From contig NW_008705572.1 of assembly GCF_000186865.1 (NCBI RefSeq), positions 827,384-891,383 of the forward strand: a stretch of DNA of 64,000 bases, written 5' to 3'. Every line of letters starts with the position of its first letter. Within the stretch, counting starts at the first letter, position 1. The DNA comes from Aureococcus anophagefferens (taxonomy: Eukaryota > Sar > Pelagophyceae > Pelagomonadales > Pelagomonadaceae). Positions 10,643 through 63,508 of this stretch are shown piece by piece. The notes under the pieces are model-generated. The model worked only from the letters and a program-made list of their open reading frames with translations, was not told the origin of the DNA and made no database searches. The position numbers and the translations under genes were made by a program.

Positions 10643-12070
10643 TTAGTAGTCCCCGTGGATGCCCGCGCCCGTGTGGGCCTCCTCGAGGGTCGCGTCCTCG
10701 CTCTCCCCCGGGAAGTAGCGCATGAGGCTCGCGGCGTCCGGCGCGTCGACGTCGGGCACGCGCGACTGCGCGGCCTGGTGGATCGTCGGCTCCGTCTTGC
10801 TCGGCGTCTTCGCGGCGTAGTCCGGGTCCATGGAGAGGCAGACCTTGCCCCGGTAGTCGCGGACGACGAGCATGGCGATGCCGTTGCGGAACTTGTCCAT
10901 GGGGAGCACCGTCGTGACGTCCGGCGTGACGCGGCCCTCGGCCCAGAGCTTCGCGACCTGGGCCGCGGAGTCCTCCATCTCCTTGGGGTACTGGAGGGGC
11001 GACCTGGAAGCCACACATCGGGAGGGATATGACACGAAAAAGGACGCCGCGGTACGCGCGTCCAGACGCCGTGGATCGCGATGTTGCGCTGCAGGAGGTG
11101 CTCGAGCGACACCGTCGGGATCTTGCCGCTCGCGAAGCCCACGGTGAGCAGCGCCCCGCCGACCTTCATGCAGCGGAGCACGGAGAAGATGTAGTCGCCC
11201 CCCACGGGGTCGAAGACGATGTCGACGCCGCCGGGCCGCGCCTCGAGCACCCGGTCGTGCCAGCCGCGCCGCGACACGTCGACGACGCCGTCCGGCGCCG
11301 CCGACTTGCGCACGTCGCCGTCGGTCTTCGTCGTGCACCGCAGCGTGAACGCGCCGAGCACCTTGCCGACCTCCACGGCGGCGACGCCGACGCCGCCGTT
11401 CGCGCCGAGCACGGCGAGCGCCTTCCCGTCCCAGCCCGTCTTGAGGATGGGCCGCGTGCGGTGGCCCAGGGCGAAGTAGGCCGTCACGTAGTCGCTTCCC
11501 AGGCTCACGAACTCGGAGAAGTCCTTCATGCCGCACGTGTCGGGCAGCTTCACGCACTGGTAGTCTGCGGGCGGGGCGGGGGGGGGGTTCGCGGTCGGCG
11601 CGCGCGCGGCCCTCTCACGGCGACGCCGCGCCCGCGCCGTGCAGCAGGAGCTCCTCGGCGCAGGTGCCGCAGGTCCAGGGCATGACGACGCCGACCTTGT
11701 CGTTGATCTTGAACTTGGCGCTGTTGATGACCGCGACGACGACGCCGCACGCCTCCGCGCCGGGGCACATGGGCGTCTTGGGCCGCTTCTCGTACTTGCC
11801 GTGCATGCCCAGGTAGTCGCTGTAGGAGATGCCCGCCATGCGCACGGACACGACGACCATGCCCGCGCCCACGTCCTTGTCGCGCAGCGACGCCGAGGCG
11901 AGCCTGTCGCTGATGGACTCCGCCGCCGGCAGCATGGGCCGCGGCACGTCCGTCCACTCGATGGACCCGCCGATGGACCGGATGCGGATCGCCTTCATCG
12001 ACCCGTTCGGATACTCCTCGACGGGCGCCGCGGGCTTCGATCGCCACGGGCGGTGGCCAAAAGACGACAT
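10643..12070 (-). CDS. zinc-type alcohol dehydrogenase / quinone oxidoreductase-like MDR protein, three exons
   Basis: Proposed exons on the minus strand are 12070-11638, 11564-11056 and 10990-10643, giving 429 residues. Exon 1 carries the N-terminal catalytic fold (MAGISYSDYLGMHGKY, PMCPGAEACGVVVAV). Exon 2 carries the Rossmann dinucleotide motif AVLGANGGVGVAAVEVGKVLG and VDIVFDPVGGD. Exon 3 has the C-terminal AAQVAKLWAEGRVTPDVTTVLPM segment. Intron 2 (11055-10991, 65 bp) is GT-AG in phase 0. Intron 1 (11637-11565) fits only as GC-AG in phase 1; its exact donor is inferred. The family reduces quinones, enones or aldehydes with NADPH. The product is certain to family level only. The start is the ATG nearest the conserved region. 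Confidence 0.82.
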
Positions 12071-12178
12071 CGTATGGCGCAGCCCCGGGGGCTCGTGTGG
12101 GCAGCTTCTAAGCACTGCTCTTGACCAGCAAGTTGCAGGTTTTTAGGACGACGCGCTGGGCTGGGCAGCCTCGACGGC

Positions 12179-12646
12179 ATGGCCGGAGACATCCTCGAGA
12201 AGGTCACACATTTGCTGCTCGAGGACGACGCCTTCGCGCGGGAGCTCGAGGAGTGGTGCCTCGGCCACTGTGGCGGCTTCGACCTGGACCAGGCCGACGA
12301 CGAGCACTCGCTGGCCTACACGGACTTGCACGGCCAATTCTGCCTACTCTTCGAGAAGCGCATCGAGCGATTCCTCGACGGCGAGGGCTACTCGACGGCC
12401 GAGTTCTGGCAGAAGCTCACGAAGGCCGTCGACGACGACCGACCCCTCGAGGGCGAAGGGCGCGTGCTCCTCTCCCGCGCGCCGCCGCGGCGACGCCGCG
12501 CCCGCAGGTTCATGCTCGAGGCGCTCAAGACGACCTGCGACTACGAGCAGTTCGTAGCGCCGCGGCGTCCCCGCTTTGTTCGAGGAGACGCGGTCTCGTA
12601 GGCCGTCACGATGCGCCAGATGAAGCGGGAAAGCGCGCGGGACTAA
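12179..12646 (+). CDS. BART-domain protein (ARL2-binding-protein / CFAP36-like), three exons
   Basis: Proposed exons are 12179-12459, 12508-12556 and 12602-12646, giving 124 residues. The BART signature runs through the spliced product: LLLEDDAFARELEEWCLGHC, then LAYTDLHGQFCLLFEKRIERFLDGEGYS, then FMLEALKTTCDYEQFV. BART proteins bind the GTP form of ARL2/ARL3 and are linked to cilia and mitochondria. Both introns (48 and 45 bp) read as GC-AG with GCGCG or GCGCC donors. The middle exon is only 49 bases. Retention of either intron would keep the frame, because each is a multiple of three. The stop lies 4 bp from the stop of the convergent sulfotransferase. Confidence 0.75.
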
Positions 12647-12650
12647 CGTG

Positions 12651-13397
12651 CTAGCTTACGGGGCTCCCGCAGAAGTGGGCCCAGATGGCCATGTCCGACG
12701 CGAAGTAGTCCTCGAGCCACGCGCGCGCGTCCGCCGCGAGGGGCGTCTGGTCGCGGCCGAGCTTGTTCGCCACGGGCACCTCGCAGATGCGCGGGTCGCG
12801 GAACCGGTCGCGGAGCTGCTCGTGGATCGGCGGAGCGCCGCCGCCGACGCACACGACGACGTCGTCGAAGTCGGGGCGGCGCAGCACGTACTTCGACTGG
12901 CCCGTCTTGCCGTGCTCCGCCGTCGCCTTCGACCGGAAGCTCTCGAAGACGGCGCCGAGGTCGACGGTGCCGTTGGGCAGCGACCACTTGTCGTCGACCT
13001 CGTGCCGCGCGTAGAACAGCGTCGACGACGCCCAGTGCTCCACCGGGTGGCGGAGCGCGACGACGATGGGCCGCGCGTGCGCCTCGTCCGGCCGCGTGTG
13101 CCAGCCGCTGCTCCGCTGGGCGCCGAGCGACCAGCAGACGTGGCTCCGCAGCGCCGCGTCCCACTGCACCTGGTTGTAGAGCGCCGTCGAGCCCGTCTTG
13201 GGCGACCGGTAGAGGTCGTGCGTGCAGGTGCGGTTCGCGTCCGACGCGACGGGCAGCAGGTACGCGTCGTCGCGCCTCAGGTGCGTCGCGGCGTCGTGCG
13301 ACGTGAACAGCGCCGCGCAGCGCGGCGAGAGCACGTGCTCGTCGTCGAAGGCTGCAGTGAAGGACAGCAGAAGCAGCGCGAGGCCTCGCATCATCAT
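12651..13397 (-). CDS. secreted/Golgi sulfotransferase-like protein
   Basis: The 248-residue protein begins with a hydrophobic leader (MMMRGLALLLLSFTAAF). The segment YRSPKTGSTALYNQ near residue 63 matches the 5'-phosphosulfate-binding loop of sulfotransferases (PKTGTT-like). IVVALRHPVEHWASSTLFY near 112 matches the 3'-phosphate-binding RxP motif. This suggests transfer of sulfate from PAPS to a glycan or glycoprotein in the Golgi. The remainder is not closely matched to a named subfamily from memory. It is divergent from the CTR copper transporter, with 132 bp between the starts. Confidence 0.72.
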   Translation of the reverse strand: MMMRGLALLLLSFTAAFDDEHVLSPRCAALFTSHDAATHLRRDDAYLLPVASDANRTCTHDLYRSPKTGSTALYNQVQWDAALRSHVCWSLGAQRSSGWHTRPDEAHARPIVVALRHPVEHWASSTLFYARHEVDDKWSLPNGTVDLGAVFESFRSKATAEHGKTGQSKYVLRRPDFDDVVVCVGGGAPPIHEQLRDRFRDPRICEVPVANKLGRDQTPLAADARAWLEDYFASDMAIWAHFCGSPVS

Positions 13398-13529
13398 GGA
13401 AGCAGCGCGAGCCGTCGCATAATCTTGGGCAGCCCATTAAAAAGCAAGTTGAGCGGCAACATCTTTGCCGAAATCGGGACTTCTGCCACAAAGCTGTGAT
13501 CGTCATAAGCTCGTCCCGCCGCACAAACC

Positions 13530-14199
13530 ATGTCGGCGTGGACGCGCTTTATTACCTATATGCGCTGGCCAGCTCGAGTCATCGCAATTCCGGCGGTCGT
13601 CGCGGCCTGCGCGCTCCTGGAGACCTTCTTTTTGTACGCGACGACGAGCGGCGAGTTTTGCTCCTACGCCATGTCCATGGACATGAAGATGGAGGGTTTC
13701 AAGACGATCTGGGCGGACCGCGAGATGACGAGTTGCGTCGTGCTCTTCGCGCGCCTCCGGCGCCCGCGCGAGCGAGACGCGCGCGCGCGCGCGCCGACCG
13801 CCGCGTCCCCCGCCGCAGAACTCGGCGTGGGTCCTGCGCACGCGGCGAGAGTTCCTGCTCGCCTTCACGATGATCATGCTCGTCGCCGCGTGCTCCGAGG
13901 CCCTGGGCTACGAGCGGCGGCTCCTGCGCCAGGCGTCCATGGCCGCGAAGGGCCGCGGCGCCGCGCTCGGCGCGAAGGACAGGATCCTCATCGCAGCCGC
14001 CTTCACGATCCACATCACCCTCGGCTACCTGCTCATGCTCTGCGCCATGACCTACCAGGTCGAGCTCCTCTTCGCCGTCTCCGCGGGCCTCGGCCTCGGC
14101 CACTTCGTCTTCAACGCGGACGCGAACCCGTCGGAGCGCATCGACCCGTGCTGCGGCGACGAGGCCGCGACGGAGAAGTCGCCGCTCATGAACGCGTGA
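13530..14199 (+). CDS. CTR-family copper transporter, two exons
   Basis: Proposed exons are 13530-13748 and 13819-14199, giving 199 residues. The protein has three membrane helices typical of CTR. The first follows PARVIAIPAVVAACALLETFFLY. After the short Met-rich loop with MSMDMKMEGF and SCVVLF comes NSAWVLRTRREFLLAFTMIMLVAACSEALGYE. The last helix region holds HITLGYLLMLCAMTYQVELLFAV, matching the GxLLM...MTYN core of the family. The protein would form a trimeric Cu(I) importer. The 70-bp intron reads GCGCGCC...CCGCAG and joins VVLF to NSAW in phase 0. No GT donor gives a continuous protein. Confidence 0.82.
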
Positions 14200-14287
14200 G
14201 GGTTGGTAAGAGCTTGGTGTGGTGTGTGCGACGTGCGACGTGCGACCCCTGGTGCGCCGCGCGGCAAGCAAGCGCGAGTCTCGTCTG

Positions 14288-15124: not shown

Positions 15125-15153
15125 AGGGCGATCGTGTTTAGAGTCACTCGGCT

Positions 15154-15663: not shown

Positions 15664-15780
15664 GGTCTTGCGGTGCTGCTGCCCGCGGCGGAGTCGCTTG
15701 AGCGTGGCGGTCTTGAGGCGAGCCGCCGTCGAGGCCCGAGATGTTGATGCATGGAGCTAAAGTTGCCCCTCGATGAGACG

Positions 15781-17249
15781 ATGGCCCGACCTCGATGCCT
15801 CGTAACCACAATTCTAGTAGTGATTGCATTGCTCGGTTCGCTGCTCCTCGGCATCCTCGCGCCGAGACCGCAGCGGCTGCCCCGCTGGAGCGACGGCACG
15901 GCGGCCATGGCCGGGCGCGTCGTCGCCGAGGGCTGGCGTTGTCGGGCCGGGCAGCCCCAGGCCGCGTGCATCCGCAAGCTGCTCCGGCGCCTGCGAGGAG
16001 GCCGCCTGCGGCCCTTCGCCGACCGCACGAACGTGTCGGCCACGAGCTGCGCGCCCGCGAGCGCCTGCGCGGCCGCGCGCGCGCGCGCGCTCGGAAGGCG
16101 CGTCGACGTCGTCGCGTTCGGCGGCAGCGTGACCGTGGGCCACGGCACGGGCGGCCGGTCGGGGAATCGCGAGTCCAAGTTCATGCCCTACGTCGAGCTC
16201 TTCGCCGCCGCGCTGCGCGTCACGAGCGGGAGCGAGGTCCGCGCGTTCAACTTCGGCGTGCCGGCCGCGGGCCCCCAGGTGCCGTCGTTCTGCTTCCACG
16301 CGATGGCGAAAGCCGCGGGCGCCGAGCCGTCGATCGTCATCCTCGAGTTCTCCGTCAACGGCCTCGACCGCCTCGGTTTCCTCGCGGCGGGCGTGCGGGC
16401 CGCGTACCCGGCCGCGGTCGTCGTCTATTTGGACGTGTTCTCCATGGACGAGCTCTCGATGCCGGGCTGCCGGTCCCTGGACAGGATCCCGAGTCTCGCG
16501 CCCAACGACATTCCGGGCGTGAGCCTGCGGCCGGGCTTCCTGCCCTCGGGCGACCGGCCGGGCTCCTTCAAGACGGCCGGTCTGCTCTACGGGAATCGCA
16601 AACGGGCCACGCGCATCCACATGAACGTGGAAGGCCACCTCCTCGCGACCTACCTCCTCCTCGACTTCTACGCGGATTTGCGCGGCTCCGGCGCGCGACG
16701 TGCGAGAGACTTCGAGGGACACACCCCCGTAGGCTCGACCGCGGCGACGCGTGCGGCGACGCGCCGAGGCCGCCCGCGGCGCCCGCGACGGTCTGCGCGA
16801 CGCGGGACCCGCGCGTCTCCGGCGACGCGCTCCTCGCGCCGACCGTGTCCGACGTCGACGCGGCGGGCTGGCGCGCCGCGCTCGTCAACGACGACCCGAA
16901 GAAGCCCGTCTACGCCGTCGGCCCCGGCCTGTCGACGTCGCGCCTCGCCGTGCCCTTTTCGCTCGGCGCGACGTCGGAGGTGTTCGTGGCGTTCATGCAG
17001 TCCTTCAAGGCCAAGGCGCCCTACGGCGTCGCCGCGATCTCCGCGGACAACGCGACGCCGCCGACGCTCTTCGACGGCGGCGCGCTGCAAGATCGGCTAC
17101 ACCTGCTGATCACGCGGCGCATCGCCGTCGCCGAGCCGGGCCCGCACGAGCTCGAACTCGTCATGACGAACGAGACGCAGACCGCGGGCCACGCGTTCGC
17201 CTTCTACGGCGTCTTCGCGCAGGCCAATTTCGGACGCCGTCGGCCGTAA
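15781..17249 (+). CDS. SGNH/GDSL-type hydrolase-like protein, membrane anchored, two exons
   Basis: Proposed exons are 15781-16679 and 16733-17249 (471 residues); an upstream ATG at 15751 adds 10 residues. A signal anchor (CLVTTILVVIALLGSLLLGIL) is at the N-terminus. The SGNH block I pattern VDVVAFGGSVTVGHG is at about residues 110-124, the block III-like FSVNGLD near 193 and the C-terminal histidine segment HMNVEGHLLATYLL near 280. Members hydrolyse esters, often acetyl groups on glycans. After the splice, an Ala-rich beta-type domain of about 170 residues follows. The intron reads GCGCGGC...CCGTAG, 53 bp, phase 2. The substrate is unknown. Confidence 0.68.
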
Positions 17250-17257
17250 GGTTGAAT

Positions 17258-19739: not shown

Positions 19740-19857
19740 CTTGGTAATCCCGCGAGTTTTTTTTTACGAGCGCCGATTGTTGCCGTCTTCATTGAAGCGA
19801 GTGCGACGGGTAACGATGGCGGCATAAACCACCCAGCCAGACTCGGCTGCAAACGCA

Positions 19858-23827: not shown

Positions 23828-26800
23828 ATGGGCACGGGCGCGTCGTCGCCGTCGGGCTACAGCGAGGTCGAGCTGCTCGAGACCATCGGCGGCCTCTACG
23901 ACGCCGAGGCGCGCAAGGCCTTCGAGTACCACGGCAAGGACGACGACGACGGCGTCCGCCGCGTGAGCGAGAAGACGTGCCGCCACTTCGCGAAGAAGCG
24001 GCCCTGGCTGCTGGACGCGGACAAGGTCGTCGTCGGGAACCTGCGGCTCCTGCGCGCCGCGCGGCTCGGCGTGGAGAAGGCCTGCCTCGAGCACCTGGGC
24101 GGCGCGTGCCTCAAGCTCACGGACCGCCGGGGCAGCGGCTTCGAGGCCGACGAGGTGCTCCAGCGGTCCCTGGGCGACGGCCAGCCCGTGCGCGACGCCG
24201 ACGGCCTCTACGCCGCCGCGAAGCGCTGCGAGGAGGTCTTCCGCCACGAGGTCGGCGCGGCCGCGTTTCGCGCGGGCTCGGAGACGTTCGCCGTCTTGCC
24301 CCTCAAGAGCCGCGGCCGCGCCGTCCGGAAGGCGGACCGCGAGTTCGGCGCGCGGGGCAAAAATGTTTCCCACTTCTGCCGCCTCTACGACGTCGTCCGG
24401 GGGAACATCCGGTGCAAGGACGAGGCCGAGCTCGCCGGGGTCTACGCGTCGCTCGCGGGCGACGCGGTCCTGCGGATCGTCCGCACGCGGAACCGCTTCC
24501 GCTCGCCGAACTGGAACGGCTACCGCGACCTGCTCCTCACGCTCGCCGTCAAGGTCGGAAACGTCGACCACTACTGCGAGCTCCAGCTCGAGGTCGCGGC
24601 CGTCGCGGACGCGGGCAGGCGCCTCCGGTCCTACGAGGTCTACGTCTACTTCCGCGAGTTCTTCAGCCACGGCGGCCGGCGCGACGGCGAGCACGACAAG
24701 GTGCGGCTCCTCCTCGCCGGGAGCGGCGGCAAGATCGAGACGATCCAGGCCTACGTGGACCGGTGCCTCGAGACGTTCGCGGCTGTGCCGAAAACAACCG
24801 CTGGTTCGGGTGGTCCTGACCAAACTTGAGAATTCTCGAGCTCGGTCACATCGAAGTCGATTCGGCTGATTTTTGGACGGATCGATCGCTCTCGTCGAGT
24901 TCTCGAAGCCCAGCCGAAGAGCTTGTGTCAAAACATTCGAATACGCGCATATTGAAGTCGAGTTGAAGATTTGAATTCGGCACAGGTTCGCGGACGAGAG
25001 CGACGCGCTGACGCACCTCGTCCACTTCCTGGGCCACCACGGCCGGGAGCACATCCCGGAGGTCGCCGAGCGCATCGCCTGCCTCGGGAACCGGCGCACG
25101 GCCGTCGAGGCCGACTGGGCGCTGGGCATGTCGGCCATCGACGAGAAAGCGCTGGAGGCGGAGCTCCGCGACGAGGGCCGCTACGACCACGGCACCGCGC
25201 GCATGTCCGTCGTCGTCGGCCACCACAGCGCCGACGGCGCGACCTTCGATTTGTCGGCGAACGAGCTCGCCGCGAAGCTCATGCGCGAGTACAAGTACGT
25301 CGACGCGGAGCACCTGCTCCGGAAGGCGCTCGGCGTCTTCACGCGCGAGCTCGGCGAGGACCACCCCCACGTCGCGCTGGCCCTGGACAACCTGTGCGTG
25401 TGCCTCCGGGAGCAGGACAAGCACGCCGAGGCGGGGCCCCTCTACGAGAAGGCGCTGTCCATCGCCGTGCGCCGCGGCGGGCCCTGGCACCCGGACGTCG
25501 CGACGACGCTCGCGGGCTGGGCGAGCTGCCTGCGCCAGCAGGGCCACTACGGCGAGGCCGTGCCCCTCTACGAGCGGTCGCTGAAGATCTGGGAGAAGCA
25601 CCTCGGCGGCGACCACGTGCACGTCGCGGAGATTTTGCAGAAACTCGCGCAGGCCCTGAACTGCGAGGAGGAGCACGCGCGGGCCATCGTCCACCTGCAG
25701 CGGGCCGTGGCGATCCGCGAGAAGCACCAGGGCCCGGACCACGGCGACGTCGCCGCGGATTTGGCGGGCATCGCGGACGCGCACGCGGCGCTCGGCGAGC
25801 ACGACAAGGCCGAGGAGCCGCTGCGGCGCGCGCTCGACATCTGGGAGGACCAGCTCGGGTCGACGACGCACCCGCTCCTGAGCACGGTCGTCAACAAGTT
25901 CGCGCTGCTGCTGCGGAACCTCGGCAACTTCCAGGAGTCGGAGCTCTACTACCGCCGGGCCATCGCGATCTGCAAGGAGCAGCTCGGCGAGGAGCACGGC
26001 GACTACGCGAACGCGCTGCGCAACCTGGCGAGCCTCTACGAGCTCGTCCACAGCCGGCGCCACGAGTGCGAGCCCCTCTACCGCAAGGTGTTGAGGATCC
26101 GCGAGGCGGAGAACGGATCGGACGACCCGTCCGTCGCGGGCGCCTTGCTCGATTTAGGCCGGTCGCTCCTCGTCCAGGACCGCTTCGCGGAGCCCATCTT
26201 GCGGCGCGCGCTCAAGATCCGGGAGCGCCGGGGCGGCCACGACACGCTCGAGGTCGCCGAGACGCTCGACGCGCTCGCGACCGCGCGGTCCAAGTCGAGC
26301 GACGTCGAGAGCGCGCTGTCGCTCTACGGCCGCGCGATCGAGATCAAGGAGAAGCTGCTGGGCCCCGACGACGTCGCCGTCGCGTCGTCCGTGCACAATT
26401 TGGCCGAGCTCCACAAGCGGCGGCGGGACTACGACGCCGCGCGGCCGCTCTTCGAGCGCGCGCTGAGAATCGGCCGCGCGAAGCTCGCGCCGGACTCGAC
26501 GCCGCTCGCGACGACGATGGCCAACTACGCGAGGTGCCTCGAGAAGCAGGGCGACCACGCGGCGGCGGAGGGGCTGCTGGCCGAGGCGCTCGCGTCGCGC
26601 GAGAAGGACGCGAAGGGCCGCGCCGACGTCGCCGTCGCGAAGACGTCGTTCGCGCTGGGGGCCGTGCTCGAGGCCCAGGACAAGCTGGCCAAGGCCGAGG
26701 AGCGCTACCGCGCCTGCCTGGCCATCTACGAGGACGTGCTCGGCGACAAGGACGTCCGCGTCGCGACGTGCCTCACGGCGCTCGGCCGCGTGCTCAAGCG

Positions 26801-37506: not shown

Positions 37507-39166
37507 ATGCCGCCGCCGTCGGCGAGCCGGCGGGGCAGCCTCGACGGCCAGCGGGAGGCGAGCCGGCGCCACAGCCTGCCGCTGTCGTCGCCGCGGCCCG
37601 GGCTCGTGCGCCAGAACGCGACGAAGGTGCTGCTCCACAAGTCGATGCGCAGCTCGTACCGCATGGGCAACGACCTCGGCGAGGACATGCGGCTCTACTG
37701 GCAGTACGGCAAAAAGTTCATCCACGACTCGCTCGGCATCGTCTTCATGGGCGTGGGCCTGGGCCTGCTGTCGCTCTACCTCTTCTGCGCCGAGGACCCC
37801 AAGGCGTTGCCCAAGGACACGCACGGCTGGCCCGAGGTCGCCGCGCTGCCCCTCGCGCTGTCGATCATCGGCTCCGCGCTGAGCTTCCTCCTCGTCTTCC
37901 GCCTCTCGTGGGCCTTCAACCGCTGGAGCGACGCGCGGTCGCTCATGGGCGCGACGACGACGCGGCTGAAGCGCTTCTCCGTGCTGCTCCACTCGCAGAT
38001 CGGCACGGACGGCGGCACGCCGAAGCAGAAGCTGCTCCTGGACGAGTGCACCGTCGTCCGCCGCGCGGAAATCAGACCAAACTTTGAAATTCTCGAGCTC
38101 GGTCAAATCGAAGTCGATTCGGCTGATTTTGGGACGGATCGATTGCTCTCAGCGAGTTCTCGAAGCGCGGCGAAAGAGTCTGGTCTAAACCGTTCGATTA
38201 CGCGCACATTGAAGTCGGGTTGAAGATTTGATTTCCACGCAGGTCGTCTGCGACCTCTACTTCGCGGCCGTCGTGCTGAGCCTCGAGAAGGGGCCGACGT
38301 ACACGTACCCGCGCGGCGACTTTGCGGCGTCTCGGGTTGTTTGTGAGACGGCGGCCGGGACAATTTTTCGCGACTTAGGCGACAAGCGGCCCGCGGACGT
38401 CATCGGCCGCACGGCCCACGAGCAGGTGCTCGCGACGCACCAGTGGCTCGCGCACCTCGTGCGCAAGGGCGGCGACCTCGACCTCGTACCCACGGCGGCG
38501 GCCGAGTCGGCCTACGACGACCACCGCCACCTGCTCCTCGAGTACTTTTCGTCCCTCAAGATCAAGACGACGCCGCTGCCCCTGCCGCTCCAGTGCCTCG
38601 TGAGCATCCTGAAGATCGCCTACACGGTCTTCATCTTCCCGCAGACCATGGCCTACGCCTTCGTCATGAAGCTGTCGTCGGGCCACCACGAGAAGTTCTT
38701 CATCTGGCGGAACCCGGTCTACATCTGCGCGTACCTGCTCATCACGACGCTCGGCGTCCTCTTCTTCACGGTCATGCACCTCATCGCCCTCGAGCTCGAC
38801 GACCCCTACGGCGACGACCTCAGCGACCTGCCCATGAAGCAGATCCACAACGCGCTCAAGGCGGACCTCGAGGCCATCCACCACACGTCGACGCACGTCT
38901 TCCTCGCGCACACGCGCGCGGGCGACCTCGAGCTCGAGGAGGAGGACGACGAAACGCCGACCTTCGGGGAGCGCGTCGGCGCGAGCTTCCGGATGAGCAA
39001 GGCGCGCATCTCCGCGTCGCTGAGCAAGGCCGCGCTCCACGTCCCGCCGTCGCCGACGCGGTCGCCGCTCGCGCCCGCGCCCGCGCGCGGCGACACGGCC
39101 GACAGCGCGCTGTTTCGCACGCTCATGTCCCAGCACCTCGACGACGACGACGACGCCGTGCTGTAA
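37507..39166 (+). CDS. bestrophin-family anion channel, two exons
   Basis: Exons are 37507-38052 and 38243-39166, giving 489 residues. The bestrophin N-terminal helix pair is clear: HDSLGIVFMGVGLGLLSLYLF, then LSIIGSALSFLLVFRLSWAFNRWSDARSLMGATTTRLKRF, the equivalent of the FRTNxxYxRWWEAR segment. Exon 2 carries further helices (PLQCLVSILKIAYTVFIFPQTMAYAFV; NPVYICAYLLITTLGVLFFTVMHLIALELDDPYGDDLSDLPM), including the C-terminal D-rich DDPYGDDLSDLP motif. Algal bestrophins carry Cl- or HCO3-, often in thylakoid membranes. The intron is introner element B, removed in phase 0 to join DECT to VVCDLY. The start is the ATG at the basic, Ser-rich leader; an upstream in-frame ATG is at 37408. Confidence 0.88.
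38061..38242. mobile_element. introner element B (intron-forming non-autonomous DNA transposon)
   Basis: Terminal inverted repeats of 14 bp, CCGCGCGGAAATCA at 38061-38074 and TGATTTCCACGCAG at 38229-38242, match at 12 of 14 positions. The flanking 8-bp duplication GTCGTCCG (38053-38060) and GTCGTCTG (38243-38250) has one mismatch. The intron is 38053-38242 (190 bp): GT comes from the left duplication and AG from the right inverted repeat, in phase 0. The interior shares long stretches with element A, such as TTCTCGAGCTCGGTCA, TCGAAGTCGATTCGGCTGAT and GTTGAAGATTTGA, but the termini of the two differ. Confidence 0.93.
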
Positions 39167-39289: not shown

Positions 39290-40186
39290 ATGCCGATGCT
39301 CCCGTTCTTCGGCAGTGCCCCGCCGGCCTTCCTGTCGGCGCGCATCAAGATCGAGGCGAGCAACACCGCGTCGATCTATTCCGTCGATCTATTCCGGCAC
39401 TGTTCCTCGGGGCACGTGCCCGGCGGTTAACACCACGCGCGGAGCCCCCGACCGCGGGGACACCCCCCACCCGGCCGCGAACCCATTAGACCCCGGGCGA
39501 CGACGACGCGAGCGCCCATCGCTCGCGAGATACGAGACCCGCGCGCGCGTCCGGTCGCGCCGACGCGATCGCTCGACGATAACCGCCGCCCCGCCCCGCA
39601 GGACAAGGACAAGTTCCTCGAGTACGCGCTCACCTTCGGTCCCGCGGTGAAGAAGTTCGGCGGCAAGATCGTCGTCAAGACCGCGGACCTCGACGTCCGC
39701 GAGTCGTCGCAGGGCGCCGAGGGCCTGCTCACGGTCATCGAGTTCCCGTCCATCGCCAAGGCCAAGGCCTTCTACAAGTCGCCGGAGTACGAGCTCACGC
39801 AGGACATGCGCGCGTGCTGCTCCAAGTGCGACCTCGTCATCGCCGAGGGCCGCGCGGCCGCGACGCCCGGCGCGGGCAAGGGCTTCGTGATCACTCGCGT
39901 GAAGGTCAGCAACCGCGGCAAGCTCGCGCGCATGCAGGACCACCTCGAGCCCCTCGTCGAGATGTCGAAGAAGCGCGGCGGCCGCATCCTCTGCAAGTCG
40001 CCCGACCCCCACGTCATGGAGAGCGAGCAGGGCGCCGAGGGCGCGCTCATCGTCATCGAGTTCGCGGACGCGTCCAAGGCCCGGCTCTTCTACGAGTCCG
40101 ACGAGTACCAGCTCCACAAGGCGGAGCGCGAGGCCTGCTCCGCGGCGGACCTCGTCATCGCCACGGGCATCACGCCCCCGAAGTGA
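39290..40186 (+). CDS. tandem DUF1330 protein, two exons
   Basis: Exons are 39290-39355 and 39602-40186, giving 216 residues. Two DUF1330 (dimeric alpha-beta barrel) copies are joined. The first runs AFLSARIKIEDKDKFLEYALTFGPAVKKFGGKIVVK...EGLLTVIEFPSIAKAKAFYKSPEYE. The second runs FVITRVKVSNRGKLARMQDHLEPLVEMSKKRGGRILCK...GALIVIEFADASKARLFYESDEYQ. The copies are clearly related, so an internal duplication mimics the usual homodimer. The biochemical role of the family is unclear. The 246-bp intron joins KIE to DKDK in phase 0 with donor GCGAGC and acceptor CCGCAG; no GT donor restores the domain. Confidence 0.85.
39370..39395. repeat. 13-bp tandem repeat inside the DUF1330 intron
   Basis: GTCGATCTATTCC occurs twice in a row at 39370-39382 and 39383-39395, close to the donor site of the 246-bp intron. 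Confidence 0.85.
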
Positions 40187-48364: not shown

Positions 48365-49925
48365 ATGTCGGCGGACGCGAAGGACGTCGAGGCCATGTCC
48401 ATAAAAGAACTAAAAGCCCTGATCACGTCCGCGGGCTTGTCGACGAAAGACTGCGTCGAGAAGGCGGACCTGCGGCGCCGCGCAGCACAGGCGCGCCTCG
48501 CCGCGGGGGGGGGGGAGCACGTCGCCGCCGGGCGCCGCCGCGCCTGCCGCGCCCTCCGGCCCGTCGCCGTTGGGCAGTTGCGACACCCCGTCGACGTTGG
48601 GCGGTACGGCCCAGCAGGACGCCTTCGCCTGGCTGGTGGAGCTCCTCGGCCCGCTCGAGGGCCGCGCCCGCGAGCTGCGGGGCGGCAATCGCGGCAAGCT
48701 GGACGTGATGGTCCTCGACCTGCGCGTGCGGCGCGGCGCAGATCCGACGCCGGACGACCGGATTCTCGCGGACGCGCACATGTTCTCGCGCGCCCGGCCG
48801 AAAAGCATCGTCTCGCACATGGACAGCCTCGGCTTTCCGAAGTCGTTCGCGCGGCCGCAGGTCGCGATCATCCTGTCGAAATGCAGCTTTCGCGAGGAGG
48901 ACACGACGGTCATCTGCTGCGTGGGCGACAAGGTCCCGCCCCGGGGCGGGCGGCCGCCACCGAATTTTAACCACACCTTCTTCAGCACGTGCTTCGACAA
49001 GCTCCAGGGCATCCGCGATCGCGCGGCGGCCCGGCTCGAAGAGAAGATGATGTCGAAGGGCGAGCTGGACACCCCGGAGCAGATCGCCGCGCGGGCGCGG
49101 ACGCGCGGCGACCGCCACGCGTGCGGCGCCTGCGGGAAGGTCGAAGAGAAGATGATGTCCTGCGCGGGCTGCAGGCAGGTGCGCTACTGCTCGCCCGCGT
49201 GTCAGAAACAGGCGTGGAAGGCGCACAAGCTGGACTGCAAGAAATACCAGAAGGTTGCCGCGGACGTCGACGCGACGCGCCGTCTGATGGAGGAATCGGG
49301 GAGCGTTTGGTGCCAAAAAAAAGGGAAGGACGTGGCCAAGGGCCTCTCCGGCTGCGGGCTCGACGCGATGCCGTCCGCCGAGGAGATGGTCGCCTTCCAG
49401 GTCAAGGTGAAGCGGTTCGAGAAGGTCCTCGTGCAGTCGGGCTACCTGTCGAGGCTCGTCTGGGAGGCGCGGGGCGACAAGTGGTGGGAGATCGGCGGAG
49501 ATTCCGTCGACGCCGTCCGGCGCGCGGGCCTCGCCGGGACCCGGCAGATTGGGTGCATGATCAAGAATGGCGACTTCGAGGACTGGTGCGCCCGGACCAA
49601 CGAGAGCGTCGAACGCGTCGGCAAGAGCGCGTCCGGGCTGGCCATGGAGTTCTTCGACGCGAGCGACATCCGCCACTTCAAGGATGTCCGGCCGGGCCTG
49701 GCTGTCATCGAGAAGGCGTTCCGCCACCCCGGTTTCGACCCTACGCATCACTTCATTTGTGGCTTCCTGGATCCGACCTACAGGCCCTACGCGGACGCAA
49801 CCATCTGCGTCCCCTACGAGCTCCGCTTCAACCTCTCGGACCCCGGCGGGCTGGATGACAACGGTAATCGCATCGATCAATCGATGCGCAAAAGGATGAT
49901 CGACGCGCAGACACTTACTCGGTAA
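48365..49925 (+). CDS. MYND zinc-finger protein
   Basis: Proposed exons are 48365-48490 and 48618-49925, giving 477 residues. The N-terminus MSADAKDVEAMSIKELKALITSAGLSTKDCVEKADLRRRA is a SAP/helical module seen in algal MYND proteins. The MYND finger CGACGKVEEKMMSCAGCRQVRYCSPACQKQAWKAHKLDCKKY is near 208-250, with all Cys and His zinc ligands. The rest is an uncharacterised C-terminal domain (about 260-477). The two frames are joined either by a 127-bp intron with donor GCGCGCC and acceptor CAGCAG, or by a one-base error in the 11-G run at 48505-48515 inside that stretch; I prefer the intron. MYND fingers bind proline-rich proteins. Confidence 0.75.
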
Positions 49926-54101: not shown

Positions 54102-57100
54102 TTAGTGCGTCTTGCGGATGAGATGCGTCGACCGCCCGGGGACCCCCGGGACGACGTCGAGGACCTTCTTCGACTTGCTCGCGGACCGCGGCCGGTCCGG
54201 CAGCTTCACGGGCAGCATGTGCGTCTGCCGCGCCTTCGTCCCCGGGACGACCTCGATGTGGCCGCCCTTGCTGCGGTCGCTCGCGGACCGCGGCCGGTCG
54301 CCCGCGGCGGCGAGCGGCGCCGTCGGCGACCCCCGGTCCGTCGCGGACCGCGGCCGCGCGGCGCCGAAGAGCGACGCCTTGATGTTGTCGAGGATGGACC
54401 CCTTGCGCGTGCTCGCGGGCTTCTCGTAGGCCTCGGGCGTGAGCTCCGGCAGCACGGCGTGGCGGAGCTCCTCGAAGTCGACGACGTTGTCCATCTTCGT
54501 GTCGATGGACCTACGGAAAGGCGCGCGCGTCTCGCGGGCGCGCGCGCGCGCGCGCATCGCGAGGGGCGGGGCGACGCCGCCCCGCGCCGGAAGAGGAAGT
54601 CGAAGGTCGCGTAGGTCATGTGGATGTTGAGGTTCCGCGTGAGCATGCGGAGCTCGTGGTAGTTGAGGCGGCCCTTGCCGTCGAGGTCGAAGTTGTTGAA
54701 GCAGACGAAGAGCTTGCCCTCCTTGTCGCTGGACGAGCCGATCTTCTCGAGCATGCGGCTCCGGAAGCTGTTGATGGCCTCGTCGCGGATGGCCTCGTAG
54801 GCCTGCTCGTCCGTGGACTCCTGGATGTGGCCGATGATGTCGAGGTCGATGTTGACGACGGCGTGGACGAGCGCGGCGGACTTGACGATGGCCGTGAGGC
54901 AGCCCGTCCAGAGCACGGGGGGCACGAAGACGAGGGCGACCCAGGCCGCGCCGAGGCGCGCGGCGATGCGCCCGAAGGACATGAGGAGCAGGGCCCAGTA
55001 GAGGCAGGAGAAGAGCAGGAGCACGTCGAGCACGTTCATGTACGACTCCGAACCACCGAAAGGATACACGTACTCGAGCTCGGGCCGGTCCATCTTCCGC
55101 GCCATCATGGCCCAGGCGCTCTTCTGGAAGGGGTTCAGCGTCGACGACCGGCGCCGCTTGTTCGTCACGTCGCCCGCGAGCGTGCCCATCATCGACGCGA
55201 ACTCGAACGCGCTGTTCGTCAACGACGCGCGGCGGCCGCCCTCGCTGGACCGCCGCGAGCTCGCGGAGCCGCGGCGCTGGCGCCCCGACGGGCGCCGCGG
55301 CGGCGGCGGCGCGTCGGCGCCCGTCTTCGACTCGCCGACGAGCTGCGCCTCCAGCGCGTCGAGGTCCGCGTCGCCGGATTTCGGCGACGGCGGCAGGCGG
55401 CGCCGCGTGGCGACGTGGGCGCCCGCGCGCGCCTCGCGCACCTTGTCGAGCTCCTCCTTGTCCGGCGCCGACGTGCGCCGCTTCTGCGTCTCCACGGTGA
55501 AGTTCTCCCACGCGGAGTTCGTCCGCTTCATGAGGTCCGTCGGCCGCCGCGGCAGCGTGCGGCCGCTCATGCCCACGCTCGACATCTGGGGCAGCAGCGG
55601 CGGCATGGCCGCGACGCCCTCGGGGTGCACGCGGCTAGGGGTCGCGACGGAGCCCGCGGGGCTCGCGCACCGCGCCGCGTCGAGCGCCTTGCCGTCGCCG
55701 TGCTCCGCCGCGGGCGGCGCGCCGCCGAGCCCCGCGTCCCGCTTCGACTCCATGCGCCGCATGCCCGGCCGCTGGCGCGGCGCGGGCGACGACGACGGCG
55801 TGACCTCGCGCTTCGACTCCTGGCGGCCTAAACCCCGGCGGGGCCCGCGCGGCGTCGCCGTCGCGGATAGGTTCGAGTTCTGGCGCTCCATGCCGCCGCC
55901 GGGCCGCCGCGGCGTCGGCGGCGACGGCGCCACGGGTTTCGCAACCGGCTCCGGCGCCTTGGTCTCCTCCGCGCCCTCGTCCTCCTCGCCCTCGGCGAAC
56001 GCTTCGCCTAAAGCGGACTCGGACGGCGGCGCGAGGCCGGCCTTGAGGCTCCCCAACAGGCTCGGCCGCGACTTGTCGCTCGACGAGTCGAGCTCGCCGG
56101 GCCGCGCCGTGCCCATGCGCACGAGGCTCGACCGCCGCCGCTTCACGGCCGCGTCCTTGACGGACGGCGGCGCGCGCCGCGGCGGCGACGCGGCCGGGGG
56201 CGCCGCGGCCTTGGGCGGCGCGTCCTCGTCCTCGTCCTCGTCGCCCTCGGCGAAGTCGCAGGCGCCCAGCGCGTCGCCCATGATCGACGGCGTCGGCTCC
56301 GCGCGCGTCGCGCCCTGCTGCGCGGGCCGCGACTTGTCGGACGCGTCGAGCTCGCCCGGCCGCGCGGTGCCCATGCGCACGAGGCTCCCGCGGCGCCGCG
56401 GCGGCGCCTTGGACGGCGCGGGCACGAAGGCGTTGTCCGGCCGCGCGGACCGCAGGGGCTGGATCTCCGCGAGCGCGGCCGGCGGCGCGTCCTCGTCGGC
56501 CTCGCTCGTGCTCGAGTCGTCCTCCTCCTGGAACGTGCCCAGGGACGGCGCCGCGGACACGCTTTTGGGCGCCTCGTCGAGCTCGCCGACCTGGCCCGTG
56601 CCCGACCGGGCGAGCGTGCCGGGCTGCGACTCGCCGCCGTCGTCGTCCTCGTCCTCGTCGTCCTCGGCGAACGCCGCGAGCGACAGCGACCCGGACGACT
56701 TCTGCGGCGCCGCGTCGAGCTCGCCGACCTGGCCCGTGCCCGACCGCGCGAGCGTGCCGGGCTGCGACTCCTCGTCCTCGTCGCCCTCCTCGGCGAGGGC
56801 CAGGCCGCCGAGGGGCGCCGCGCGCGGCGTCTTCGCGATCGACCGCCGGAGCTCCTGGGGCCGGCCCGTCGCCGTGCGCACGAGCGACGGCCGCTCGACC
56901 TCCGACGTCTCCTTGAGCGAGTTGAGCTCCGCCGTCACGAGGGACCGGTCCAGGCCCTCGGACGCCTTGGGCGCGACGTAGGTCTCGCCGGACGCGATCA
57001 TGCCCAGCGTCCGCGCGGAGCCCCGCGCGACGACGGTCGCGCCCGCGGACGCGCGCGCGGCCTTGCCGCCGCCCGTCGCCGCCTTGAGCTCGTTGGGGTG

Positions 57101-59593: not shown

Positions 59594-59872
59594 GTAAGAC
59601 GGCACCCCTCCCGGTGCTCCCCCCAAAAGAGACAAGCCGACACTCGAGCATCGTAAAACTTCGAGGGGCGCGCCGCGTCTTCGTGCGGCGCGCGCGCGGG
59701 GCGTTCGCCGGCGCGTTGTTGCCGGGTCCGCGGTTCCCCCGCGCGGGGTGGAGGTGTGGGCTCGCTTGTGCGGCCGCGGCAGCGCATTCGGCGAATACAC
59801 GCCGTCGCCCGGTCGGGCTTCGCGGAGGGGTCGCCCCCCCCGTGCGCGCTGCAAAGGGGGCGGCGGCGCCGC

Positions 59873-60484
59873 CTAGCCCTGGGGCTTGGGCTCGACGCCG
59901 CCCGTGTTCGCCTGCTCCTTCTGGATGGGGAGGAAGAGCTTGAACTCCGGGGGCAGCTCCTCCTCGGAGTAGAGGCGGTCGCTGAAGTAGATGCGGCGGA
60001 TGCGGCAGTTGGCGTGGATCTGCACGCGGAGCGTCTCGATGTAGTTCGTGCCGTACGCGCGGCGCGTGAAGTCGCTCAGGTTGAACTGGATCTGGTTCCA
60101 GCCCTCGTCGAGGCGCATGGGCATGGTGCAGATGAAGGGCTTGACGCGCGTCGTCGACTGGTAGTTGGACGCGCGGAAGCGGCGGCGCACGTTCTTGTCG
60201 TCGAGGACCTGCACCTCGAACGTGAAGTACTTCTTCAGGTTCTTGATGATCATGACGAGGAAGGGCAGCTTGATGCCCAGCGTGCGCTTCGCGTCGGCGG
60301 GGCACGTGATGTAGTTCGTGCTCACGTTCGTCCCCATGATCTCGAGCACCGACGACTGGATGTCCTGGTCCGTGATTCTCTTGATGTGTCCATTGCGCAC
60401 CTTCTTGTCCCAGATCTGGAGCGGCTTCGACCCGATGGAGTAGAGCACGCTCAGGAAGCCGCTCTGGAACGTGTTGCGGAACAT
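59873..60484 (-). CDS. CFAP20: cilia- and flagella-associated protein 20
   Basis: The 203-residue protein is near-identical in pattern to CFAP20 (BUG22/GTL3) across eukaryotes: [149 protein letters not shown]. It is an inner-junction protein of ciliary doublet microtubules and also has non-ciliary roles in some species. The frame extends upstream to 60625, but the conserved start is at 60484. Its presence fits a lineage with a flagellum in at least part of its life cycle. Confidence 0.97.
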
Positions 60485-60840
60485 GGCGTCGAACCGCGCG
60501 ACGCCAACGCTCGGGACCGGTACCTGCGGCGCGCGCGATTCGCCGCGCGGGCGGCGCGCGCGATCGGGGCGCCGGGCCGCGCTTCGTCGAGTAGGCGCTG
60601 TCGGTCGCTCAGCCGCTGCGCTCACGGGCGGTTGTGGGTTGTGGAGGATTAGCGACGATATAATTTGCTACTGCAGCGATGTTTCCGTTTCCCTCGCGAG
60701 GTCGTCCGGCACATGCACATGCGTGTGGCCCGTTGAAGTTAACGTTGAAGGCGGACGCGCGCGTCGTCGACGCGGTGGCGATCGACGCGTCGTGCGGCGT
60801 TTCGTGTCGGCGACGAAAGAGCCGCCATAGCACCGAGTCC
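60485..60840. promoter_or_regulatory. CFAP20 5' flank with AACGTTGAA/TTGAAGTT motif
   Basis: About 360 bp lie between the CFAP20 start and the transposon. It contains CGTTGAAGTTAACGTTGAA at 60733-60751, a form of the CAAGTT-type motif found in front of many genes in this window. A promoter role is inferred only. Confidence 0.35.
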
Positions 60841-60848
60841 CGCGGCAC

Positions 60849-60927
60849 TTGAGGGGGGTCGGTGGCGCCCTCGGCGCCCTCGGCGCCCTCGGGACGAGGG
60901 CGCCGCCCCCTCGTCCGACGCCCTCGG
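60849..60927 (+). repeat. left terminal inverted repeat of the 1.07-kb transposon
   Basis: This arm is 79 bp, a perfect match to the complement of 61843-61921. It contains three GGCGCCCTC units in tandem near its outer end. Confidence 0.95.
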
Positions 60928-61842
60928 ACCCTCGGACGGAGGATCGGCGCCCTCGGACGAGGACTCGGCCGTCGGACGAGCGCGCGGCCGTCGGACGAGC
61001 GCACGTCCATCGGACGAGGGCGGCGAACCGTTGGTGACCCCCGGCCCGGGGCGCTGGATGTCCGGGGCTGCGTGATGTGTTTATGACAGGCTTTGCACCC
61101 GCGCCGCTCAGCGAATACGCGGAGATGCGCAACGATCTCTGTGGCTGCATGGGCCGCATCCTGACGGACGACGCGCCGGTGAAAACGGGACGTCCAGGCG
61201 ATGGCGTCGGGGAACAGGCGGGCGGTTCTCAGAGGCTCGAATGGGGCGCGCTCGACGCCTCCCAACCCATCGACTCGTTTCGAATCACTGCAGCATCGGG
61301 AATCGTTCGTCGTCACCCAGGCGTCGTCTCGGTACAAGGGCTGGGTCGTGAGACTCGAAATCGTCGAGTTCGTCCGGTCGGGGCTCGGGCGCCGCGGCGG
61401 TCCGACGGAGACTCCGTGATGATCCACGGGAGAGATCGTCCCTGGCCGCCCCCGGGCCACGCTCCATCATCGACTGGGGCGACTGCGCGGCCTAGGACCG
61501 ACAGGACCTCGTGCCCGCGCCGACGTGTAGGCAGCCCACGGCGCCGCGAGGGGAAAGCGCCGCACGGCCGCCGCTCTTGGCTGCGCCCCGTCTCGGGGAC
61601 CGTCGCGACCGTGGGCGTCAATGCCGGCACCCACGGCGCGCCCAGGGACGCCCAAGGGCTGCGCCTTTGGGCTGCCGCGCCCCCTCATAACCTTCCAACG
61701 ACGGATGGCCAGAGATTTGCAGTCACGGTTCGAGCGCGCCGGGCGTGCCTGGCCAATCAGCGGCCGTCGGCGCCCTCGGCGCCCTCGGCCATTTCGGACC
61801 CTCGGACGCTCGGCTCCCTCGGACGAGGGGAAAATCCCTCAG

Positions 61843-61921
61843 CCGAGGGCGTCGGACGAGGGGGCGGCGCCCTCGTCCCGAGGGCGCCGAGGGCGCCGAG
61901 GGCGCCACCGACCCCCCTCAA
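61843..61921 (-). repeat. right terminal inverted repeat of the 1.07-kb transposon
   Basis: It is the perfect complement of 60849-60927 and is bordered on the right by the target duplication CGCGGCAC at 61922-61929. Confidence 0.95.
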
Positions 61922-62008
61922 CGCGGCACCGCCGGCCGCTCCTCTAGACCGCTATACCGACTCGTGCGAGTATCGCGACGCACCCCCGCGCGAACAACCC
62001 CCCGGCTC

Positions 62009-62547
62009 TTACCGGCGCTCCTCGACGAGGGCGCTCGCGAGCTGGGGCCTGAGCGCGAGGATCGCGGCGACGTCGGCCTGCTCGGACGCGACGATGGTCG
62101 CGGCGAAGGGCGGCGCGGAGATGATGACGAGGCAGCACTTGTCGAACATGGACACGAGGGTCTCGAGCTTGCCGATGCGCATCTTGTTCGCCTGGGACAC
62201 GACGGTGGCGACGAGCGGCGCCGGCAGCGCGACGTCCGACCCGTCGTCCGACTCGCTGCCGAGGCCCGCGTAGGTGCGCAGCGTCACGCCGCCCGACGAC
62301 GTGACCAGGAGCCTGCGCGGGGAGACGGCGCGCGTCGCGATGCGGCGCGATGCGGCGCGCGTTAGTGCGGCGCGCGGCGCGATGCGGCGCGCGTTAGTGC
62401 GGCGCGCGGCGCGATGCGGCGCGCGTTAGTGCGGCGCGCGCGTGCGCGATGTGATGCGCCGCCATAGCACGCTTTCAGCGTCTCGTTTTGGATGGACCGC
62501 CAATAAGTCTCGAGCTTCACGGCGTCGAACTCCGGGTCGGCGGCCAT
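62009..62547 (-). CDS. roadblock/LC7-like small protein (Ragulator or dynein light chain type), two exons
   Basis: Proposed exons are 62547-62438 and 62312-62009, giving 137 residues. Exon 1 encodes MAADPEFDAVKLETYWRSIQNETLKACYGG. Exon 2 encodes LLVTSSGGVTLRTYAGLGSE...PLVATVVSQANKMRIGKLETLVSMFDKCCLVIISAPPFAATIVASEQADVAAILAL, with the alternating strand-helix pattern of roadblock/longin-type folds, as in LAMTOR subunits. The match is by fold pattern, not clear sequence identity. The 125-bp intron reads GC-AG and holds three 32-bp repeats. The divergent GTPase-like gene starts 93 bp away, which fits a roadblock-GTPase partnership but does not prove one. Confidence 0.55.
62346..62441. repeat. 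three 32-bp tandem repeats inside an intron, each with a CACTAAC word
   Basis: The unit contains GTTAGTG on the plus strand at 62361, 62393 and 62425 (period 32). On the coding minus strand this is CACTAAC, which resembles a branch-point consensus, at about 48, 80 and 112 bases from the acceptor. Confidence 0.85.
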
Positions 62548-62640
62548 CGCGTTGAGCAGCGCAGATCGAGTGTTTTTGCCGGAGGGCAACACTCGCTTTT
62601 GTTGAACCACAAATCCCGTGGCCCACGGGCAGCTCCGCCC

Positions 62641-63508
62641 ATGTTCGTGTGCTTCCCCGGCGAGGAGGAGGAGCCCGTGCCGCGGACGCGGGCGCGGTCG
62701 GACACGGCGTCGGCGACGAACGGCCGCGTGCTGCGCATCCTCATCGTCGGGCCCGACGACGAGAAGCAGCAGGTGCTCGACGACATGCGGTCCATGTACG
62801 GCCGCATGGGCGCGAAGCACGCCGTGTCCGTGGGGACGACGATCACGGCCGTGGAGAACTTCCACTCGCCGCGCTTCGCGCGCGACCCGCGCGCGCGCGC
62901 GCGGTCCGCGACGCGGACGGGCGCCGGCGGCGAGGGCGGCGACAAGGGCAAGAAGCAGATGGTCATCTTCAACATGGTCCCGTCGCGGGACCTCGACGCG
63001 CCGCGCATCTCCTCCGACTTCGAGGCCTACATCCCCATGTCCAGCGGCGCCGTCGTGCTCGTCGACGGCACGGGCAACTGGGCCGACAAGGCCGTCGCCT
63101 GGAGCAAGCGCATCGCGGACGTCAAGCGCGCGCGCCGCGTCCCGGAACCGGACGCGCGCACATGTTTGTCGTCGTAGGTCCATGCCCATCGTCCTGCTCA
63201 TCAACAAGGTCGGCGTCGTGCCGCTGCCCGCGGGCGTCGACCGGACGTACGACGGCGTCATGGACCACCTCAAAGCGGACGTCGACCGCTTCACGGCCGC
63301 GAGCGAGATCCCCGTCGTCGGCTGCTTCCTCCGCGCCCGCGGCAACCTCGACCTCGACTCGACCATCGACTGCGTCTCCGAGCTCATGGACGGCATCGAG
63401 CGGAGTCGGAAGCGGCCGACGCTCGCGCCCGAGTACGGCCTCACGGAGGACATCGACGGCTGCGGCTTCCTCGCGCCGGGCGCGGACGTCGGCTGCTTCG
63501 GCGCGTGA
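62641..63508 (+). CDS. small-GTPase-like protein with degenerate P-loop, two exons
   Basis: Exons are 62641-63125 and 63178-63508, giving 271 residues. Strand-helix segments follow the Ras-fold order: LRILIVGPDDEKQQVLDDM in the P-loop position without the GxxxxGK[ST] signature, KQMVIFNMVPSRDL, GAVVLVDGTGNWADKAVAWSKRIADVKSMPIVLLINKVGV (NKVG in place of NKxD) and EIPVVGCFLRARGNLD. It is probably a non-canonical or nucleotide-free GTPase relative. The 52-bp intron reads GCGCGCG...GTCGTAG in phase 2 and joins ADVK to SMPIV. It is divergent from the roadblock-like gene. Confidence 0.6.

What the first reader, a model, noticed from the sequence alone, without database searches (positions are those of the whole stretch)
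11565..63177. Most short introns here appear to be GC-AG with a GCGCG-like donor
Ten introns restore conserved proteins in phase only with GC donors: 11637-11565 (minus), 12460-12507, 12557-12601, 13749-13818, 16680-16732, 39356-39601, 48491-48617, 54587-54511 (minus), 62437-62313 (minus) and 63126-63177. Donors read GCGCG, GCGCC or GCGAG; acceptors end in CGCAG, CGTAG or AGCAG. Only four of about fourteen introns are GT-AG, two of them introners. GC-AG introns are about 1% in most eukaryotes, so a majority class would be remarkable. A U1 snRNA or early spliceosome change could underlie it.
Basis: partly seen in the sequence, partly recalled or inferred. Interest (0 to 1): 0.85.

Follow-up and report, generated by a model that had tools for sequence, protein, structure and literature searches.

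The report
GC-donor introns common in Aureococcus
In this brown-tide alga about half of the introns examined begin with GC instead of the usual GT, so its splicing machinery seems unusually relaxed at that letter; abundant GC introns were already reported for this species, so the finding is real but mostly an extension of known work.

Summary
The window lies in a 49-Mb, GC-rich genome whose proteins match Aureococcus anophagefferens. All ten claimed introns read GC...AG. Other sequences confirm exact GC-AG boundaries at 11565, 12460 and 63126; domains span 39356 and 54511; 13749 and 16680 are likely; 48491 and 62313 are unresolved; 12557 is wrong (12554-12601, GT-AG). Transposon-derived introns ("introners") give a test free of gene models: the donor is the start of the 8-bp target duplication. 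In 8 copies found by location the splice end always starts GC or GT, the other end in 1 of 8 (p=0.0014). GC share: 3 of 8 strictly and 5 of 12 by eye (location), 13 of 20 in a bias-reduced set of best hits. The full best-hit set, 31 of 39, is inflated because my query carried flanking GC letters. So GC is roughly 40-65% of donors; a majority is possible, not proven. In print: 39.6% for A. anophagefferens, a GC majority for Emiliania huxleyi. U is preferred over C at +2 only about two- to fivefold relative to availability. A changed U1 is neither shown nor excluded.

The parts
11565..11637 (-). GC-AG intron (GCGCGGGC...CCCGCAG) in a quinone-oxidoreductase/ADH-like gene
   Evidence: Spliced product LLLH|DYQC is gapless to P0003; NCBI A. 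anophagefferens models P0001 (24 extra residues there) and P0002 (22 residues missing) disagree with it; ADH_N spans the junction
12460..12507 (+). GC-AG intron (GCGCGTGC...CCCGCAG) in a BART-domain (ARL2-binding) gene
   Evidence: P0121, on a 529-nt contig, 97% identical, lacks it exactly, as do P0124-P0126; P0122, P0123, P0127 read through it in frame; Pfam PF11527 spans it
12554..12601 (+). GT-AG intron (GTAGCGCC...CTCGTAG); corrects the claimed GC donor at 12557
   Evidence: P0121, P0124, P0125, P0126 lack the extra V; the HMM also chose 12554
13749..13818 (+). probable GC-AG intron in a Ctr copper-transporter-like gene
   Evidence: open on both sides once joined; HMM donor posterior 0.59, acceptor 0.99; the Ctr match lies downstream of the junction
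16680..16732 (+). probable GC-AG intron (GCGCGGCT...CCCCGTAG)
   Evidence: open on both sides once joined; HMM donor posterior 0.86, acceptor 1.0; no Pfam match
39356..39601 (+). GC-AG intron (GCGAGCAA...CCCCGCAG) in a DUF1330 gene
   Evidence: DUF1330 match 13-105 runs across the junction at residue 22
48491..48617 (+). claimed GC-AG intron in a MYND-finger gene; boundary unresolved
   Evidence: HMM runs place other introns here
54511..54587 (-). GC-AG intron (GCGCGGGG...TTCCGTAG) inside an EF-hand pair
   Evidence: EF-hand_7 match 79-140 spans the junction at residue 120; GC-started HMM gave both ends, the uniform-started one gave the acceptor and a donor 12 nt away
62313..62437 (-). claimed GC-AG intron in a MAPKK1_Int gene; donor unresolved
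   Evidence: acceptor supported; the HMM prefers donors further upstream, an in-phase GT at 62470; the Pfam match lies downstream
63126..63177 (+). GC-AG intron (GCGCGCGC...CGTCGTAG)
   Evidence: spliced product ADVK|SMP is gapless to P0129 (61% over 100%); P0128 by my reading runs into the intron
24775..24985 (+). introner: 8-bp duplication GTTCGCGG, element CTGTGCCGAA...TTCGGCACAG; GT donor from the duplication
38053..38242 (+). introner: duplication GTCGTCCG/GTCGTCTG; GT donor from the duplication

Best explanation
These are ordinary spliceosomal introns of Aureococcus anophagefferens, whose spliceosome needs G at +1 and a pyrimidine at +2 but tells U from C only weakly (about two- to fivefold relative to what exons offer). 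GC-rich mutation and chance then place C at many donors. New introns arise when introner transposons bring an AG acceptor in their terminal repeat and borrow the donor from the first letters of the duplicated target, taking GT or GC. Shown: exact GC-AG boundaries at three window sites; G-pyrimidine at the splice end of all clear introners. Inferred: weak +2 discrimination as the cause; which component is relaxed is unknown.
For: Three GC-AG introns fixed to the codon. Eight introners found by a location scan that did not ask for G-pyrimidine: 8 of 8 start GC or GT at the splice end, 1 of 8 at the other end (p=0.0014). Best-hit sample, family A: GC 31, GT 8, other 0 of 39; in the 20 copies with at most 9 element mismatches 13 GC, 7 GT. 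Family B: 39 of 39 have G-pyrimidine at one or both ends; of 24 unambiguous 13 GC, 11 GT. HMM with AG fixed: GT- and GC-started runs both end with C above T at +2; the uniform start gives a one-base-shifted motif of similar likelihood. Donor scan: G[CT] best, GC 14 and GT 98 log units lower. In an LRR gene, seven successive GCGAG...GCAG introns removed give uninterrupted 24-residue repeats.
Against: My full best-hit sample is tilted to GC: the query held all 8 letters of the GC-starting downstream copy, and at 10 element mismatches 15 of 15 copies are GC. By location GC is only 5 of 12 by eye or 3 of 8 strictly, below the exonic background of 79% (p=0.006, 0.013), so C and U are not equivalent. 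Ordinary introns at the stricter HMM cut are 11 GC, 7 GT, or 6:7 if the LRR gene counts once. The HMM scores acceptor GG above AG. PMC7789003 says Aureococcus introners have canonical splicing motifs. No RNA reads were available.
Confidence: 0.7

Rival explanations
1. U1 snRNA has changed (for example at the base opposite +2), so that GC donors pair as well as GT.
For: Canonical U1 pairs badly with the GC donors checked: 3-4 Watson-Crick pairs in six of seven, 6 at 39356. No U1 by Rfam model at E<=10 in the searchable genome; of 35 sites within one mismatch of the canonical 11-nt 5' end none is U1-like.
Against: The one GT donor checked (12554) pairs no better, 3 pairs. PMC3033335 reports a putative A. 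anophagefferens U1 with the exact consensus. Much of the assembly is withheld (34,298 of 200,000 sampled bases; 4 of 12 further spots), and the whole-genome U1 search had no positive control, so the gene may simply not be visible.
Confidence: 0.12
2. The GC donors are mostly misplaced: true donors are GT nearby and GC is picked because it is common.
For: One of the ten is exactly this case (12557 against 12554); GC is 15.7% of exonic dinucleotides.
Against: Three introns fixed to the codon have GC; introner donors are fixed by the duplication, not by frame, and GC is 5 of 12 or 13 of 20 there.
Confidence: 0.08
3. Introner GC/GT starts come only from the transposase's target preference and say nothing about splicing.
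For: In the best-hit family A sample the opposite end also shows G-pyrimidine in 21 of 39, above the 20% background, though that sample is flank-tilted.
Against: In the location sample, free of that tilt, 8 of 8 against 1 of 8.
Confidence: 0.08

Closest known systems
GC-AG introns of Aureococcus anophagefferens (PMC3033335, passages read)
   Same: same species by protein match; GC-AG extraordinarily abundant (39.6%, from EST/Unigene alignments), close to my location-based introner share
   Different: verified sites, introner duplications and disagreeing public models are added here; the passages I read do not use introners
Emiliania huxleyi GC-AG majority (PMC4028052, passages read)
   Same: GC donors outnumber GT (56% of 241 curated junctions, 61% in Cufflinks), AG kept, GC-rich genome, gene models biased to GT
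   Different: a haptophyte; confirmed there by RT-PCR and reads, here by sequence only, and a majority is not proven here
Introners of Aureococcus (PMC9860276, passages read; Huff et al. 2016, recalled, not read)
   Same: DNA-transposon-like, terminal inverted repeats, 8-bp duplications
   Different: PMC9860276 shows one Aureococcus sp. family carrying both splice sites and adding 12 bp; here the donor lies in the duplication
Fritillaria borealis non-canonical splicing (PMC13326754, abstract and one section read)
   Same: genome-wide departure from GT donors with conserved core spliceosome
   Different: there 95% of introns escape GT/AG and acceptors change too, with duplicated U2AF; here AG is kept
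Amoebophrya non-canonical introns (PMC7789003, passages read)
   Same: introners with inverted repeats and many non-GT donors
   Different: there no clear terminal dinucleotides; here GC or GT with AG

Membership tests
GC-AG U2-type introns | GC at +1/+2 and AG at the end, exact to the base | tested here: met
   three sites, introner duplications
GC-AG U2-type introns | rest of donor close to consensus to make up for the +2 mismatch (as in human GC-AG introns; recalled) | tested here: not met
   3-4 Watson-Crick pairs with canonical U1 at 6 of 7 GC donors checked, 6 at one; the one GT donor checked also has 3
GC-AG U2-type introns | removed by the major spliceosome in RNA | tested here: inconclusive
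   one apparently spliced 529-nt contig (P0121), its RNA origin inferred; U2 and U6 genes present
Introners | many near-identical copies in genes | tested here: met
   40 scored hits each for two families, from 1763 and 1881 first-look candidates; genic position judged only for those in the sampled stretches
Introners | target-site duplication and terminal inverted repeats | tested here: met
   8-bp duplication with at most 1 mismatch in 78 of 78 (boundaries chosen by lowest mismatch); 0-4 mismatches in 12 nt of inverted ends
Introners | one splice site carried, the other co-opted | tested here: met
   acceptor CAG in the element, G-pyrimidine in the duplication: 8 of 8 in the location sample, 39 of 39 in the flank-tilted family A sample
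Genome with altered U1 | U1 5' end different from AUACUUACCUG | tested here: inconclusive
   no U1 found; part of the genome is withheld

The most novel reading that the evidence does not exclude
In A. anophagefferens the spliceosome follows a G-pyrimidine...AG rule: U at +2 is preferred over C only a few fold, without compensating U1 pairing, and introner insertions form a natural in vivo selection library that measures donor preference letter by letter. (Strict equivalence of C and U, which I first inferred, is not supported once the query-flank tilt is removed; odds and interest are lowered for that.)
Probability: 0.33. Interest if true: 0.65.

Novelty: new member of a known kind. Interest (0 to 1): 0.42.

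Why it matters
The U at +2 is among the most conserved letters in eukaryotic genes. A cell that enforces it only weakly, without strong compensation, would let one ask which part of the spliceosome enforces it, and introner duplications offer a gene-model-free assay. A practical point: the two NCBI models of one gene in this harmful-bloom alga both disagree with the GC-AG intron and with each other.

Tried and rejected
U1 by Rfam model, by exact and one-mismatch 5' end (the reversed control pattern had more hits, 77 against 35) and by two looser patterns (none, one GC-rich hit, L102, judged chance from its letters and not scanned) gave no U1. Conserved Cpn60/TCP1 and Prp8 genes were searched for a homology-based tally: the Prp8 match and six full-length Cpn60/TCP1 matches have no stops inside, so they gave no introns; the one split CCT-beta-like gene sits in a 50% GC stretch and was not tallied. 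HMM runs with the acceptor free drifted to junk motifs and are not used for counts. A homology-based tally of ordinary introns was not reached: the three protein searches went to three window genes. A first conclusion, that GC and GT donors occur just as exons offer them (31 of 39 against 79%), was dropped after one search showed the flank tilt of the query. Of 19 rows, 11 are the 8 introners (three seen on both strands); 8 rows without recognisable family ends were dropped as chance (splice-end starts CG, CG, GA, AA, CG, GC, CC, CG). Four of the 12 introners read by eye fail the strict scan. Literature searches; judged by listed titles, none reports donor preference measured from introner duplications in Aureococcus, but Huff et al. 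2016 is not among the listings.

Full report
What it is. The window is C12:827384-891383 of a 49.05-Mb genome in 86 contigs, 71.7% GC. A protein from the window is 91-92% identical to two NCBI proteins of Aureococcus anophagefferens over 95-100% of its length and 99% in aligned columns. I take the organism to be that brown-tide pelagophyte or a very close strain; this rests on one protein and on the introners.

The ten sites. All ten read GC...AG. Because GC is 15.7% and GT 4.2% of exonic dinucleotides (152,427 nt of predicted exon), a GC near any frame-compatible point is expected by chance (0.57 for five positions), so I looked for outside evidence. For 11565-11637, P0003 (69%) reads LLLHDYQC without a gap, exactly the GC-AG product, while the NCBI models have 24 extra or 22 missing residues there. 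For 12460-12507, P0121 (97%, on a 529-nt contig) lacks it exactly, as do P0124-P0126, and P0122, P0123 and P0127 read through it in frame; I infer that P0121 is a transcript. The same alignment refutes 12557: P0121 and P0124-P0126 lack the extra V, giving 12554-12601 with a GT donor. For 63126-63177, P0129 (61% over 100%) is gapless across the junction. DUF1330 and an EF-hand pair run across 39356 and 54511. 13749 and 16680 rest on open frames and the HMM. 48491 and 62313 remain open.

Introners. The genome carries introners: about 180-203-bp elements with inverted ends and 8-bp duplications. Read by eye in the window and 20 sampled 10-kb stretches, 12 have the donor in the duplication: 7 GT, 5 GC. 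A script that asked only for a CAG end, an 8-bp duplication (at most 1 mismatch) and inverted ends found 8 of them clearly: 5 GT and 3 GC by gene strand (one, in L018, could be GT on the other strand), 8 of 8 G-pyrimidine at the splice end against 1 of 8 at the other end (p=0.0014). I also took the 40 scored hits of each of two families (of 1763 and 1881 first-look candidates) and fetched 39 of each, all but the query copy. 78 of 78 have the duplication with at most one mismatch. Family A, orientable by its ends: GC 31, GT 8, other 0 of 39; far end G-pyrimidine 21 of 39. This set is tilted: the query ran through the whole GC-starting downstream copy, and copies with 10 element mismatches are GC in 15 of 15, whereas up to 9 mismatches they are 13 GC, 7 GT, and up to 8 mismatches 5 GC, 1 GT. 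The near-equality of 31/39 with the exonic GC/(GC+GT) of 0.788 must therefore not be read as neutrality. Family B (query flanks also present) gives 13 GC, 11 GT of 24 unambiguous; 15 are ambiguous; none lacks G-pyrimidine at both ends. Relative to the exonic GC:GT of 3.7:1, the observed 0.7:1 to 1.9:1 means that GT is favoured about two- to fivefold.

Unsupervised evidence. A hidden Markov gene model trained on 228,692 nt, with AG fixed, reaches nearly the same likelihood from uniform, GT and GC starts; the GT and GC starts end at G, then C 0.50/T 0.28 and C 0.56/T 0.23; the uniform start is one base out of register. With the donor fixed to each of 16 dinucleotides GC scores best (-268014), then CG (-268049) and GT (-268098); G[CT] beats all (-268000). 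The acceptor scan is less clean: GG scores above AG, probably AG followed by G. With C and T equal a priori, 133 introns are in the path, 75 with flanks of at least 60 nt; ordinary ones at the looser cut are 22 GC, 8 GT (16:8 with the LRR gene's GC introns counted once), at the stricter cut 11 GC, 7 GT (6:7 with them counted once). The looser cut leans to GC because GC is common; the stricter one probably leans to GT because GC placements are less certain. The HMM's 9 introner donors (8 GT, 1 GC) often miss the duplication and are not counted. In the LRR gene (L015) eight 56-62-nt introns start GCGAG; removing the first seven gives uninterrupted 24-residue repeats, the eighth does so after a further intron that I left in.

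Mechanism. With canonical U1 the GC donors checked form 3-4 Watson-Crick pairs in six of seven cases and 6 in one; the one GT donor checked also forms 3. So donors look weak in general and the +2 mismatch is not made up elsewhere, unlike human GC-AG introns (recalled). The most likely cause is relaxed discrimination at +2 plus GC-rich sequence; the component is unknown. U6 has the usual ACAGAGA, U2 the usual GTAGTA, U1C is present. U1 was not found: no Rfam hit at E<=10 (the 14 control genomes, prokaryotes, cannot serve as positive controls), 2 exact and 33 one-mismatch copies of the 11-nt 5' end, none U1-like by cmscan. Since 34,298 of 200,000 sampled bases and 4 of 12 further spots read N, this does not show absence. 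PMC3033335 reports a canonical U1 for this species.

Compared with what is known. PMC3033335 (passages) gives 39.6% GC-AG for A. anophagefferens from EST/Unigene alignments and calls its origin an enigma; my location-based introner share agrees with it. PMC4028052 (passages) shows GC 56-65% in E. huxleyi with RT-PCR checks and GT-biased gene models. PMC9860276 (passages) describes Aureococcus introners; PMC7789003 (passages) calls their splicing motifs canonical, which my reading contradicts for the GC copies. The finding is real but extends known cases.

Noticed in passing
L103, L104, L105, L107, L108, L111, L112, L113 (contigs C24, C44, C22, C41); L002, L003: Some contigs or stretches are low in GC (0.28-0.59) in a 72% GC genome; L103 holds a CCT-beta-like gene in several pieces with, by my reading, at least one GT...AG intron. 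Low-GC chromosome part or contaminant not decided.
   Followed up: partly
L015:1838-2988: Leucine-rich-repeat gene with a GCGAG...GCAG intron in the same place of successive repeats: tandem duplication of an exon-intron unit.
   Followed up: yes
62313-62437: The claimed intron is built of about 25-bp tandem repeats holding CTAAC, a branch-point-like motif (read).
   Followed up: no
L117 (C26:442781-442894): U1C zinc finger reads HDSAPGRKQH where human (recalled) has HDSPSVRKTH; possible bearing on donor recognition.
   Followed up: no
L122 (C3:768428-768584, minus strand): U2 snRNA gene, 113.8 bits, found by chance beside a U1-like 11-mer.
   Followed up: partly
P0001, P0002 (NCBI proteins): Two public A. 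anophagefferens gene models treat the same GC-AG intron in two different ways.
   Followed up: yes
L038 and L018:2579: Introners whose two duplication copies differ at the donor +2 letter (GC against GT), hence a C/T change after insertion.
   Followed up: no
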